Below are positions 28,019-30,255 of a DNA stretch of 41,937 nt, piece after piece. The stretch spans positions 1 to 41,937 of the IMG/VR virus record IMGVR_UViG_3300044982_000051; one strand, given 5' to 3'. Both the position numbers and the translations under genes were made by a program. Position 1 is the stretch's first letter; the number at the start of each line of letters is the position of its first letter. The DNA is from a virus. The notes below the pieces were generated by a model. That model saw only the letters and a list, made by a program, of their open reading frames with translations. It did no database searches and was not told the DNA's origin.

Positions 28019-28441
28019 CTACCGCAACGCGCAGAGAAATTCTGCGAGAGATACGCACAAATTGCAGTGGGTCCACATGTCTGGCACCGCGTTGCCACCG
28101 AAATAGACGAGCGGCCGACCGACGTTTTGCGCGAAGTGCCGCGTCCACGCCTGCATCGGCAGGCCGTTTTCCGGCCGAGAAAACCAGCCGGTGAAGGCGA
28201 CCCGATCGCAAATGTAGGCCATGCCCTCGAACCAATCCGCTACTCGAGTCCGAGACGCCGGCGGCAACACGTCGGCATCCATGGCATAGCGGAAACTCGG
28301 CACCGCATCGCAGGTGGCCATCATCAAACCGCAGCCGGCGGAGACGAGCAGCCCAGAACCCGGGCGCTCGGCGCCGTAGTCCACGAAATCATCGACGGAA
28401 ATTTTATACAGCTTGCTGAGCTGTTCGATAGTCAGCGGCAT
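28019..28441 (-). CDS. conserved-looking phage protein next to terminase
   Basis: 140 aa from ATG 28441, overlapping the ABC-GNAT gene by 38 nt. It starts MPLTIEQLSKLYKISVDDFV and has WFEGMAYICDRVAFTGWFSR in the middle, several Cys (CGLMMATC, CNLC) and Trp residues, and no membrane segment. Its place directly after the ABC-GNAT protein and before terS suggests it may belong with either; I do not recognise a family. Confidence 0.65.
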   Translation of the reverse strand: MPLTIEQLSKLYKISVDDFVDYGAERPGSGLLVSAGCGLMMATCDAVPSFRYAMDADVLPPASRTRVADWFEGMAYICDRVAFTGWFSRPENGLPMQAWTRHFAQNVGRPLVYFGGNAVPDMWTHCNLCVSLAEFLCALR

Positions 28442-29555
28442 GCAGGCGGTGCGCGGTCTCGATGTCCATGGGTGGGCCAATGTACTCGAAACTCGCGATG
28501 TTGCGGTCGGTCGATCGAGTTTTGTTGAAGCGCGCGGCTTGCGCGCCGGTGTCACGTGCGGTGCGACCCGGCGCCCTGGTCATCATCCAATCCTTGGAGC
28601 GAATCGCCGAGGCGATCTCCGCCGGATGGCCGGTGTTGCGAAAGACTCGCTTGCCGAGCGCGCGCCACATGCTCGCGCAGTAGGTGATCAAGGAGCTTCC
28701 GATGCCAAGGCCCTGGAAATCCGGGAGGCAGACGGAACGGTGGCCGCGAACCGCAGAGCGATGACCCTTCAAGCGCCCGACAAAAGGCAAGTAGCTGTGA
28801 AAGGCGACCGGCATGTGATTCAGAAATGCGCAAAAGCATACGGCGCTCCGGTTCAAGTCCGCGGTCAGATAGTGATGCCGGGCGAAGATTCGCCAGTATT
28901 CGTGCCCGACTCGACGAACCTCCAGGCGGATTTGTGGACGTCGTTGAAGGGACCTCCATTGAAATTTCGCGCTCGCCGGCTCGTACATCCAATCAGGCTG
29001 CAGCCACTCAACGATATCGTAGTGGCACGATACGCCGACGAAGCGCGAGCCTAAACGCCTCACCGTTTTCGCGATGGCGCTGCTGCCGATCTGCGCCACC
29101 TGGCGATCTACCACCGAGGTGAACTCGTCCATCACCGCGAGGCTGTGATTCTCCGCCAGCGCCCTCGCCATCGTCACGCGGAACTGCTCGCCATTCGATA
29201 ACACGCCAAAGGGCCGCAGCCAGCTCGGGGGTGAGCTGAATCCCACCGAGTTCAACATGGTAGTAATGTCCCTGATCGACATAGCCGATGGAAATGCATC
29301 CACGATCGCCTGCTCCGAGGTCCATGCGAAGCCGGTAACCATCGAGCTTGGGAAAAGCTCCGCCGCGATGGTCGATTTTCCGCAGCCACTCGGCCCAACG
29401 ATCAAACCAATGTTCCACTCGCGATCCTCCAGCGGCAGATCGACGTCCCACGAGAGGGCCGAGCGCTCGGCCGGCGGCACGTCGAAAATTCCTTCCAGTT
29501 GCAGCACGCGCGCGGTGCGTCTGATCTTGGTCGATCGCTCGATGTGTGCCTTCAT
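28404..29555 (-). CDS. ABC-type ATPase fused to GNAT acetyltransferase-like domain
   Basis: 383 aa from ATG 29555 (ATGA overlap). Residues about 20-195 are a soluble ABC ATPase: Walker A GPSGCGKST at 54-62, signature LSNGEQ at 119-124, Walker B LAVMDEF at 139-145 and a His-loop SCHYD at 176-180. No transport segment is present. Residues about 215-330 look like a GNAT fold: WRIFARHHYLTADLNRSAVC, a FHSYLPFV strand and the acyl-CoA loop QGLGIGSSLI (281-290). A GNAT domain with an HHY motif, next to a zinc ribbon and a ParB-like protein, recalls Mom-type DNA modification in Mu. Domain calls are strong; DNA modification is inference. Confidence 0.8.
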   Translation of the reverse strand: MKAHIERSTKIRRTARVLQLEGIFDVPPAERSALSWDVDLPLEDREWNIGLIVGPSGCGKSTIAAELFPSSMVTGFAWTSEQAIVDAFPSAMSIRDITTMLNSVGFSSPPSWLRPFGVLSNGEQFRVTMARALAENHSLAVMDEFTSVVDRQVAQIGSSAIAKTVRRLGSRFVGVSCHYDIVEWLQPDWMYEPASAKFQWRSLQRRPQIRLEVRRVGHEYWRIFARHHYLTADLNRSAVCFCAFLNHMPVAFHSYLPFVGRLKGHRSAVRGHRSVCLPDFQGLGIGSSLITYCASMWRALGKRVFRNTGHPAEIASAIRSKDWMMTRAPGRTARDTGAQAARFNKTRSTDRNIASFEYIGPPMDIETAHRLHAADYRTAQQAV

Positions 29556-29704
29556 GTTTTTTCTCTCACCACCAGCTTGCCACCGCAGATACAGCGGCGC
29601 AGGGCGGCGCCAGCGATCGGCTGATAGAGCTTGCCGCACTTCTGGCAGACCAAAACGATGTTGGCGTGTCGATTGTTCGCATTCAGCGCGACAAAGCCCT
29701 GCAT
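29552..29704 (-). CDS. small zinc-ribbon protein
   Basis: 50 aa from ATG 29704, overlapping ParB by 22 nt and coupled to the ABC-GNAT gene by ATGA. IVLVCQKCGKLYQPI and LRRCICGGKLVV give a C-x2-C ... C-x-C zinc-ribbon. It is a paralogue of the protein at 41039-41254 (SCDRCAMRY, GRRCICGGDL). In Mu, the zinc protein Com lies just before mom and controls its translation; the arrangement here is similar, but homology to Com was not shown. Confidence 0.65.
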   Translation of the reverse strand: MQGFVALNANNRHANIVLVCQKCGKLYQPIAGAALRRCICGGKLVVREKT

Positions 29705-30255
29705 TCGAAGCCCTCTTCCGTGAGCCTGGTGAGCAGATCCGCCTGCGATTTCTCGCCGGGGCACTTCACGATCACCTGAAATTCAGCTTGGTAGCCATCC
29801 TCGGCACCGGTTTTTTGACGCAATTCCAGCGGCTTCAAGCCGTCGAATTCGCGCAAAGTGATGCCGGTTGCCTCCAATCCACCGAGTTCGGCGATCTCAT
29901 TCAGCTCGGCGAAGAGCTTATCCGGGTCCCACTTGGACTTTCGAGCCAGCTGGTTGTCGGCGATGCGGTATTGCCGCTTCATCAGGTCGGACCAGCCGCG
30001 CGCGATGATAGCCGGCACCACTTTGTGGCCCAGGCGCGTTGCCGCCTCGAACCTTCCGTGGCCGGCGATGATCGTGCCATCGGCCTCCAACAACATCGGC
30101 ATGGTCCAGCCGAATGTCTTCATCGACTCCATCAGCTCGAGGACTTGCGCCTCGGAATGGATCATCGCGTTGCGCTCGAAAGGTTTGATGCGCCTGACCG
30201 CCCACTCCTCCACGGTCGGCATGAACTTGGTCGATTTTTTTTTGGCAGCCGCCAT
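29683..30255 (-). CDS. ParB N-terminal domain-like protein
   Basis: 190 aa from ATG 30255 with GGAGGG upstream. VRRIKPFERNAMIHSEAQV, then IIAGHGRFEAATRLG (GHGR at 65-68) and a RQYRIADNQLA stretch are typical of ParB/sulfiredoxin-fold domains. There is no recognisable DNA-binding C-terminal ParB domain. In phages such proteins appear as DNA-binding or nucleotide-using partners in modification and packaging regions. It heads the zinc-ribbon / ABC-GNAT group. Confidence 0.85.
   Translation of the reverse strand: MAAAKKKSTKFMPTVEEWAVRRIKPFERNAMIHSEAQVLELMESMKTFGWTMPMLLEADGTIIAGHGRFEAATRLGHKVVPAIIARGWSDLMKRQYRIADNQLARKSKWDPDKLFAELNEIAELGGLEATGITLREFDGLKPLELRQKTGAEDGYQAEFQVIVKCPGEKSQADLLTRLTEEGFECRALSR

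What the first reader, a model, noticed from the sequence alone, without database searches (positions are those of the whole stretch)
28404..30255. ParB-like / zinc ribbon / ABC-ATPase:GNAT cassette, a candidate DNA modification system
Three overlapping genes encode a ParB-fold protein, a zinc ribbon and a soluble ABC ATPase fused to a GNAT domain with an HHY motif. The zinc-ribbon-then-GNAT order, translationally coupled, recalls com-mom in Mu, where Mom alters adenine to block restriction. The ATPase fusion and ParB partner differ from Mu, so this may be a distinct system. Its position next to terminase suits DNA marking before packaging.
Basis: partly seen in the sequence, partly recalled or inferred. 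Interest (0 to 1): 0.72.

Follow-up and report, generated by a model that had tools for sequence, protein, structure and literature searches.

The report
Phage ATPase–acyltransferase DNA-marking cassette
A phage gene cassette, built around an ATP-driven enzyme fused to an acyl-transferring domain, probably attaches a small chemical group to the phage's own DNA bases to hide it from bacterial defences, a job that a quite different enzyme called Mom does in related phages.

Summary
In detail: a ParB-fold gene, a 50-aa zinc ribbon and an ABC-ATPase–GNAT fusion overlap on the minus strand, one gene upstream of the terminase. The fusion belongs to PHROG_11143, for which DNA base acylation was already predicted (Iyer 2013, as cited in a 2021 review). 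The Mom reading needs correction. The window's GNAT domain does not match the Mom family, and its zinc ribbon is not Com and has no relative found.

Related loci nevertheless support a Mom-like job. In Porphyromonas phages, Mom and an ABC-GNAT cassette occupy the same site between homologous flanks. In transposable phages, true Com and a related leader precede either mom or ABC-GNAT. One sub-clade carries a formyltransferase immediately downstream (50 of 54) that most resembles the ALDH1L1 hydrolase domain and lacks the usual catalytic Asn, suggesting formyl-CoA as donor there.

Best reading: ParB plus ABC-GNAT form an ATP-driven machine that transfers an acyl group from CoA to a base amine in phage DNA before packaging. 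No chemistry has been shown.

The parts
29683..30255 (-). ParB/Srx-fold protein, 190 aa, first gene of the cassette
   Evidence: PHROG_620 E 3.8e-37; also the ParB part of PHROG_498 DNA methyltransferase E 1.4e-32 and PADLOC MTase_II E 1.7e-19. A ParB core lies upstream of ABC-GNAT in 70 of 72 non-redundant window-like loci.
29683..29793 (-). C-terminal tail domain of the ParB protein, ~36 aa, beta-alpha-beta by sequence pattern (not modelled)
   Evidence: Seen upstream of ABC-GNAT in 71 of 72 window-like and 58 of 60 sub-clade B loci, and in 0 of 54 Mom loci; stand-alone 42-73 aa proteins in L060, L036, L032, two of them PHROG_28816.
29552..29704 (-). 50-aa zinc-ribbon-like protein (CxxC...CxC) inserted between ParB and ABC-GNAT
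   Evidence: Sequence; no family above cut-off; the only one of 117 loci with such an ORF between ParB and ABC-GNAT.
28956..29555 (-). ABC-ATPase domain of the fusion (residues 1-200)
   Evidence: Walker A G50-K60, signature L119-S120-G122, Walker B D143-E144, H178 invariant in 25 sequences; Foldseek top 50 all ABC nucleotide-binding proteins.
28470..28946 (-). GNAT domain of the fusion (residues 204-362), HHYL motif and Q281-x-x-G284-x-G286 CoA loop
   Evidence: GNAT model pLDDT 86.9, VIA Z 13.9 to 1y9k; Acetyltransf_1 and _7 match 25 of 25 members.
28404..29555 (-). ABC-GNAT fusion gene, 383 aa
28019..28441 (-). Unassigned 140-aa gene directly downstream (probable accessory)
   Evidence: No Pfam or PHROG match; homologs downstream of ABC-GNAT in 7 other loci: L002, L062, L063, L064, L067, L080, L097.
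40570..41049 (+). ASCH-like (PUA-fold family) protein, possible reader of the modified base
   Evidence: 101.6 bits, E 8.2e-31 among 530 window ORFs, to an HMM of relatives' ASCH-like genes built without the window; the relative in L067 is Pfam ASCH, E 1.8e-7; the window protein itself has no Pfam match.
41036..41254 (+). Second zinc-ribbon-like ORF, overlapping the ASCH-like gene; resembles the cassette's zinc ribbon
   Evidence: phmmer E 0.0038 to the cassette zinc ribbon in a set of 139 sequences' ORFs; the start position is inferred.

Best explanation
The cassette encodes a phage DNA-base acylation machine. The ParB-fold protein binds phage DNA, and its small C-terminal tail docks the ABC-GNAT protein. 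The ABC domains dimerise and use ATP to clamp or distort the DNA and present a base. The GNAT domain then moves an acyl group from acyl-CoA (in the window clade most likely acetyl-CoA; formyl-CoA is possible in the sister clade) to an exocyclic amine such as adenine N6 or cytosine N4. The mark is made late, before packaging, and shields virion DNA from restriction. The zinc ribbon is a local accessory of unknown role, not the translational activator Com. Shown: gene order, domains, conserved motifs, fold, the tail partner, and exchange with mom in relatives. Inferred: DNA as substrate, the donor, the base, the division of labour, the timing, and protection from restriction.
For: (1) Prior prediction for this very family: PMC7824862 names GNAT coupled to ABC ATPase as a DNA acyl modifier and gives phage pT24 as an example; our query hits pT24 gp38/gp37 at E 2e-52. 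(2) Same-site exchange: Porphyromonas phage012a (mom) and phage006a (tail + ABC-GNAT + formyltransferase) share 3173 bp at 84.7% upstream and 87 bp at 82.8% downstream, at the genome end. (3) Same control: Com (PF10122 in 26 of 26 checked) lies upstream of ABC-GNAT in 20 of 60 sub-clade B loci and of Mom in 14 of 54; 5 of 14 com-mom leaders match com-ABC leaders (best 89.8% over 137 nt, in register), against 0 of 14 for control segments. (4) Obligate partner: ParB core in 70/72 and tail in 71/72 window-like loci. (5) A ParB gene also overlaps mom in Microbacterium phage Appa. (6) CoA-linked accessories: a formyltransferase downstream in 50/54 sub-clade B loci; aspartate decarboxylase PanD, which feeds CoA synthesis (recalled), abuts ABC-GNAT in Jace and in L104. 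(7) ASCH-like genes within ~3 kb in 25 of 97 window-like loci, and one in the window. (8) Intact ATPase motifs and CoA loop.
Against: No chemistry, DNA binding or restriction resistance has been shown for any member here. The nearest solved folds to the GNAT domain are protein and small-molecule acetyltransferases. Profile similarity to Mom is weak: local P 0.0028 with 11% probability on deep alignments, and nothing significant globally. Com, the formyltransferase (bar one locus) and same-site exchange with mom were seen only in sub-clade B, not in the window's own clade (Com 0/72, formyltransferase 1/89). The window's ASCH-like gene is about 10 kb from the cassette. ASCH was within ~3 kb in 0 of 72 sub-clade B and 0 of 61 Mom loci, so it is not a general companion of DNA acylation. 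Some members lack ParB: pT24 and PX29 by its annotation and the reading of its neighbours.
Confidence: 0.66

Rival explanations
1. Protein acetylation for host takeover. The GNAT acylates a host or phage protein (RNA polymerase, nucleoid or packaging protein), and the ABC domain is a regulatory or energising module.
For: Closest solved folds include RimI, Naa50/Naa10 and similar protein acetyltransferases; phage GNATs that modify host RNA polymerase are discussed in PMC7824862 (passages).
Against: It does not explain exchange with mom at one site, shared Com and leader, or ParB coupling. The structural matches are about 10% identical and spread over many substrate classes.
Confidence: 0.13
2. 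A divergent Mom: the same product as Mu, N6-carbamoylmethyl-adenine, with an added ATPase.
For: Exchange with mom and shared Com control; the HY motif falls in register with Mom's KHYS; 1 of 25 members matches PF25680 weakly.
Against: The window protein has no PF25680 match. It keeps a Q-x-x-G-x-G loop that is not seen at the matching place in ten Moms (by eye). The partners differ: tail 0/54 and formyltransferase 0/44 at Mom loci. Aeromonas phage PX29 carries both genes, which argues against redundancy.
Confidence: 0.1
3. RNA modification, like TmcA/NAT10: an ATPase-GNAT that acylates tRNA or mRNA bases during infection.
For: TmcA (2zpa) is in the Foldseek list (rank 48) and RNA cytidine acetyltransferase is a weak profile hit (E 0.025); tRNA-Tyr and tRNA-Asn genes lie near two members.
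Against: TmcA's ATPase is a helicase type, not ABC (recalled). ParB partners and mom exchange point to DNA.
Confidence: 0.07
4. A packaging or partition adaptor: ParB and the ABC protein organise phage DNA for terminase, and the GNAT acts on terminase or is vestigial.
For: ParB and ABC proteins organise DNA elsewhere (recalled); terminase often follows: a 12-locus cluster that holds the window's TerL and a 35-locus cluster read as TerL by its motifs, of 106 loci.
Against: The GNAT motifs HYL, R273, Q-x-x-G and W323 are as conserved as the ATPase motifs. In Mu-like, jumbo and some actinophage genomes the cassette is not next to terminase.
Confidence: 0.04

Closest known systems
ABC-ATPase+GNAT DNA acyl-modification system predicted by Iyer et al. 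2013, as cited in PMC7824862; PHROG_11143
   Same: Same protein family: the example phage pT24 is hit by the window protein; same predicted job.
   Different: The window adds a zinc ribbon between ParB and ABC-GNAT. The 2013 paper was not held, so I cannot say whether the ParB tail, Com, leader or formyltransferase links are in it.
Mu com-mom (Com PF10122, Mom PF25680)
   Same: Zinc ribbon followed by a coupled GNAT-fold gene; HY motif; in relatives true Com, a related leader and the same genomic site.
   Different: The window's zinc ribbon is not Com; its GNAT is not Mom-family and keeps the CoA loop; there is an ABC domain; ParB and tail partners.
Dnd phosphorothioation (DndB ParB-superfamily, DndD ABC ATPase)
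   Same: Pairs a ParB-superfamily protein with an ABC ATPase in a DNA modification system (PMC10853773 passages).
   Different: Dnd puts sulfur on the backbone through DndA/DndC; here a GNAT domain is fused to a compact ABC domain.
TmcA/NAT10 RNA cytidine acetyltransferase
   Same: An ATPase joined to a GNAT that acylates a nucleobase amine from acetyl-CoA (recalled); a fold-level match (2zpa).
   Different: Helicase-type ATPase, RNA substrate (recalled), no ParB partner.
ALDH1L1 N-terminal hydrolase domain and HypX N-terminal domain (for the sub-clade B formyltransferase only)
   Same: Best solved match E 1.4e-38, HypX (called HoxX in the PDB list) E 7.3e-10. ALDH1L1 moves formyl to a phosphopantetheine arm (PMC8748788 passages); HypX is proposed to make formyl-CoA (PMC6802093 passages). 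Asn of N-x-H is absent in ALDH1L1 too.
   Different: A small stand-alone phage protein next to ABC-GNAT; not seen in the window.

Membership tests
ABC-GNAT family (PHROG_11143; predicted DNA acyl modifier) | ABC ATPase domain followed by GNAT domain over the full length | tested here: met
   PHROG_11143 E 7.2e-105, profile 2-354 of 357; model.
ABC-GNAT family (PHROG_11143; predicted DNA acyl modifier) | Intact ATPase motifs and GNAT CoA-binding loop | tested here: met
   Invariant or at least 90% conserved columns.
ABC-GNAT family (PHROG_11143; predicted DNA acyl modifier) | ParB core and tail upstream | tested here: met
   Window ParB tail; family 70/72 and 71/72.
ABC-GNAT family (PHROG_11143; predicted DNA acyl modifier) | Acylated base in DNA | not testable with these tools
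   Needs LC-MS or nanopore reads of virion DNA.
Mom (PF25680) | Match to the family HMM above its cut-off | tested here: not met
   No match up to E 1 for the window protein; 1 of 25 members at E 0.0028; profile comparison weak.
Mom (PF25680) | Mom fold (PDB 8bv8) | tested here: inconclusive
   GNAT fold shared, but 8bv8 is not among the 50 rows shown.
Mom (PF25680) | N6-carbamoylmethyl-adenine product | not testable with these tools
   Needs nucleoside analysis of virion DNA.
Com (PF10122) | Match to the Com zinc-ribbon family | tested here: not met
   No PF10122 match up to E 10; about 3 bits against an HMM of 71 Coms, where Mu Com scores 66.6.
com-mom operon type | com leader upstream of the modification gene | not tested
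   The leader comparison covered com-bearing loci only; the window has no com by the tests.
Dnd system | DndA/DndC-type sulfur chemistry | not tested
   The whole window was not searched for Dnd genes; no Dnd hit among the five proteins scanned with PADLOC.

The most novel reading that the evidence does not exclude
The ABC-GNAT family is a second answer, outside the Mom family, to the problem Mom solves. An ATP-driven, ParB-tethered machine acylates DNA bases from CoA thioesters, and in one clade a phage-encoded ALDH1L1/HypX-like enzyme makes formyl-CoA in situ, so that the virion DNA carries formylated bases (for example N6-formyl-dA or N4-formyl-dC), under the same Com and leader control as mom. 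The window's clade uses another acyl-CoA.
Probability: 0.22. Interest if true: 0.86.

Novelty: new variant of a known kind. Interest (0 to 1): 0.62.

Why it matters
A computational prediction from 2013 becomes directly testable. Exchange with mom at the same site and behind the same Com and leader gives a functional reason to expect a modified base, and names phages in which to look (Komp_PAO1_1, Jace, BiggityBass). If the formyltransferase makes formyl-CoA, this would be a new donor chemistry for DNA hypermodification, as far as I know. The ParB tail, which the annotations seen here do not mark, gives a handle for reconstituting the complex.

Tried and rejected
Window zinc ribbon as Com: rejected. 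Window GNAT as Mom: rejected by HMM; hhalign with single, 10-row and 70-sequence Mom sets stayed weak. Foldseek/VIA did not name a substrate class; Mom's structure 8bv8 was not in the rows shown, and Foldseek with the whole fusion showed only ABC proteins in its 50 rows.

Zinc-ribbon relatives in viral contigs: none.

First context counts were superseded, because ORF starts were over-extended (9 false misses of ABC-GNAT beside formyltransferase) and the ParB HMM also matched the stand-alone tail. In one search, of 110/80/80/108 loci, 97/72/65/61 remained after removing those at 90% identity or more, and loci with too little flank were left out of each denominator (72, 60, 61, 54 upstream; 89, 54, 38, 44 downstream). 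In some searches I dropped L050, L054 and L041 (genome-scan ABC hits), and also L030 (truncated). Scans of sub-clade B and of the formyltransferase share contigs, so those two sets, and the 58 com-ABC leaders, are not independent. All loci came from sequence-similarity scans capped at 80 rows, so the counts describe those samples, not all phages. The tree (quick method) needs 4 changes for formyltransferase presence against a shuffled mean of 45, and warns of long branches (L033, L031, L133). The chance test for the zinc-ribbon frame was not significant (250 of 2000).

I first read the formyltransferase as formylating an aminoacyl group on DNA. I dropped this as first choice when its closest solved relative proved to be the ALDH1L1 domain and the Asn was absent in 65 of 65 (G-Y-H 57, G-F-H 5, A-Y-H 3); a D-x-x-D-x-G pattern was found in 55 of 65.
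Full report
WHAT IS THERE. The cassette lies on the minus strand of an IMG/VR virus record of 41,937 bases. ParB-fold 30255-29683, zinc ribbon 29704-29552 and ABC-GNAT 29555-28404 overlap by 22 and 4 nt. A 140-aa unassigned gene (28441-28019), TerS and TerL follow. The ABC-GNAT protein matches PHROG_11143, function unknown, at E 7.2e-105. It has all ABC motifs, including the Walker B glutamate, and a GNAT domain with invariant H-Y-L and a Q-x-x-G-x-G loop (that this is the canonical CoA loop is recalled). The model is confident (pLDDT 88.2, pTM 0.81); the GNAT domain alone folds as a GNAT (pLDDT 86.9; VIA Z 13.9, rmsd 3.5 over 137 residues to 1y9k).

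PRIOR ART. PMC7824862 (2021; passages seen) says that a GNAT coupled with an ABC ATPase was earlier predicted to carry out an uncharacterised acyl modification of a DNA base, citing Iyer et al. 2013 (reference seen; the paper itself was not held), with phage pT24 as example. The window protein hits pT24 gp38-gp37 at E 2e-52. The basic idea is therefore published. I searched for links of this family to Com, formyltransferase, ParB or ASCH in ten paper searches and saw none in the listings; this covers open-licence PMC papers only.

HOW WIDESPREAD. 55 of 50,697 phage records carry a relative, in hosts from Gordonia to Streptococcus, Leptospira and Porphyromonas. In the streptococcal and oenococcal phages looked at and in pT24 the ABC and GNAT parts are split into two genes.

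THE PARTNERS. Counts are, after removing loci of 90% or more identity and those with too little flank. Window-like clade: ParB core upstream 70 of 72, tail 71 of 72, Com 0 of 72, formyltransferase downstream 1 of 89. Sub-clade B: tail 58 of 60, ParB 28 of 60, Com 20 of 60, formyltransferase 50 of 54. Formyltransferase loci found by that protein alone: ABC-GNAT directly upstream 61 of 61, tail 60 of 61, Com 37 of 61. Mom loci: Com 14 of 54, ParB 2 of 54, tail 0 of 54, formyltransferase 0 of 44. The tail is the ~36-residue C-terminus of the ParB protein (pattern YxVVIECxxExxQxxLLxRLxxEGLxCRALIS). It survives as a 42-73 aa stand-alone protein where ParB is missing (L060, L036, L032; PHROG_28816 for two of the three). 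It is thus the most constant partner of ABC-GNAT, and I infer that it docks the enzyme. An overlap of exactly 22 nt between ParB and the next gene recurs in about 40 of 117 loci by my reading; in the window it lies between ParB and the zinc ribbon.

LINK TO MOM. In Porphyromonas phage012a the last gene is a Mom; in phage006a the same place holds tail, ABC-GNAT and formyltransferase. The flanks are homologous: 3173 bp at 84.7% upstream, and the terminal 87 bp at 82.8%. In Pseudomonas phage Komp_PAO1_1 a true Com (PF10122 E 9.1e-21) precedes tail, ABC-GNAT and formyltransferase; in phage JD024 a Com-like reading frame precedes Mom. All 26 of 26 Coms scanned from ABC-GNAT loci match PF10122 (26 of the 58 found). 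The DNA leader before com is shared between the two cargoes: 5 of 14 com-mom leaders and 19 of 58 com-ABC leaders match at E 1e-4 or better (best 89.8% over 137 nt, in register), against none for control segments about 630 nt further upstream. Mu Com is known to activate mom translation (PMC6483171, abstract start seen in a search listing). The simplest reading is that ABC-GNAT does a job equivalent to Mom's in these phages. Against equating the two, Aeromonas phage PX29 carries both.

CHEMISTRY. Unlike the ten Moms aligned (by eye), ABC-GNAT keeps the Q-x-x-G-x-G loop, so an acyl-CoA donor is likely. Accessory genes agree. PanD, which feeds CoA synthesis (recalled), abuts ABC-GNAT in Jace (PF02261 E 2e-33) and L104; these were the only two among the loci held then. 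The sub-clade B formyltransferase is closest, among solved proteins, to the ALDH1L1 hydrolase domain (E 1.4e-38), ahead of Met-tRNA formyltransferase (1.5e-22) and GAR transformylase (1.3e-11), with HypX at 7.3e-10. It lacks the Asn of N-x-H in 65 of 65 (that N-x-H is the usual catalytic pattern is recalled); in the printed alignment ALDH1L1 has I-Y-H. ALDH1L1 moves formyl onto a phosphopantetheine arm (PMC8748788 passages). HypX is proposed to form formyl-CoA, with no direct proof according to its authors (PMC6802093 passages). Hence the formyl-CoA proposal for sub-clade B. The window's clade lacks this gene (1 of 89), and its donor is open; acetyl-CoA is my default.

THE ZINC RIBBON AND ASCH. 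The window's zinc ribbon has no relative in viral contigs, is unique among 117 loci in its position, and is not Com. It resembles a second zinc-ribbon-like ORF at 41036-41254 on the plus strand (E 0.0038), which overlaps an ASCH-like gene (40570-41049). The same ASCH-like family lies within ~3 kb of ABC-GNAT in 25 of 97 window-like loci, and in 0 of 72 sub-clade B and 0 of 61 Mom loci. The seed set for that count included the window protein; an HMM built without it still finds the window gene at E 8.2e-31. ASCH domains were proposed as readers of modified bases (recalled from the 2013 abstract). I infer a writer-reader pair, with low confidence.

MECHANISM AND CONFIDENCE. ParB recruits, ABC clamps and presents, GNAT acylates, late in infection. 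DNA as substrate: about 0.66. Acyl-CoA donor, given that: about 0.8. Formyl-CoA in sub-clade B: about 0.3. No step of chemistry is shown. The nearest GNAT folds are protein and small-molecule acetylases at about 10% identity, which neither supports nor excludes DNA.

Noticed in passing
L036:5068-5685, L060:7131-7604, L032:1545-2210, L179:1823-2473: An ALDH1L1/HypX-like formyltransferase (PHROG_9240 for the first three; annotated 'tRNA-methyltransferase' in BiggityBass) follows ABC-GNAT in sub-clade B; ABC-GNAT was directly upstream in 61 of 61 loci found by the formyltransferase's own sequence.
   Followed up: yes
L035:5113-5538 and L104:1796-2143: Phage-encoded aspartate decarboxylase (PanD) directly after ABC-GNAT in two different phages, 14 nt apart in one and with a 4-nt overlap in the other.
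   Followed up: partly
window 28019-28441 (-): A 140-aa gene with no family match, conserved downstream of ABC-GNAT in seven other loci (pattern GxGLMMAxxD...RxAxDxD); function unknown.
   Followed up: partly
window 41036-41254 (+) and 40570-41049 (+): A second zinc-ribbon-like ORF overlapping an ASCH-like gene, about 11 kb from the cassette's zinc ribbon, resembles that zinc ribbon.
   Followed up: partly
L061:3469-4621 and 4654-4728: Microbacterium phage Appa: ParB overlaps mom and a tRNA-Gly gene lies beside it; this ParB ends in a CxxC stretch instead of the ABC-GNAT tail.
   Followed up: no
L131:3405-5385: Two ABC-GNAT-like ORFs in tandem (the first partial), a possible duplication or degenerate copy.
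   Followed up: no
window 39699-40022 (+): MazG-like nucleotide pyrophosphohydrolase (PF03819 E 8.3e-6).
   Followed up: no
window 30446-30877 (-): HNH endonuclease directly upstream of the ParB gene (PF01844 E 1.3e-5).
   Followed up: no
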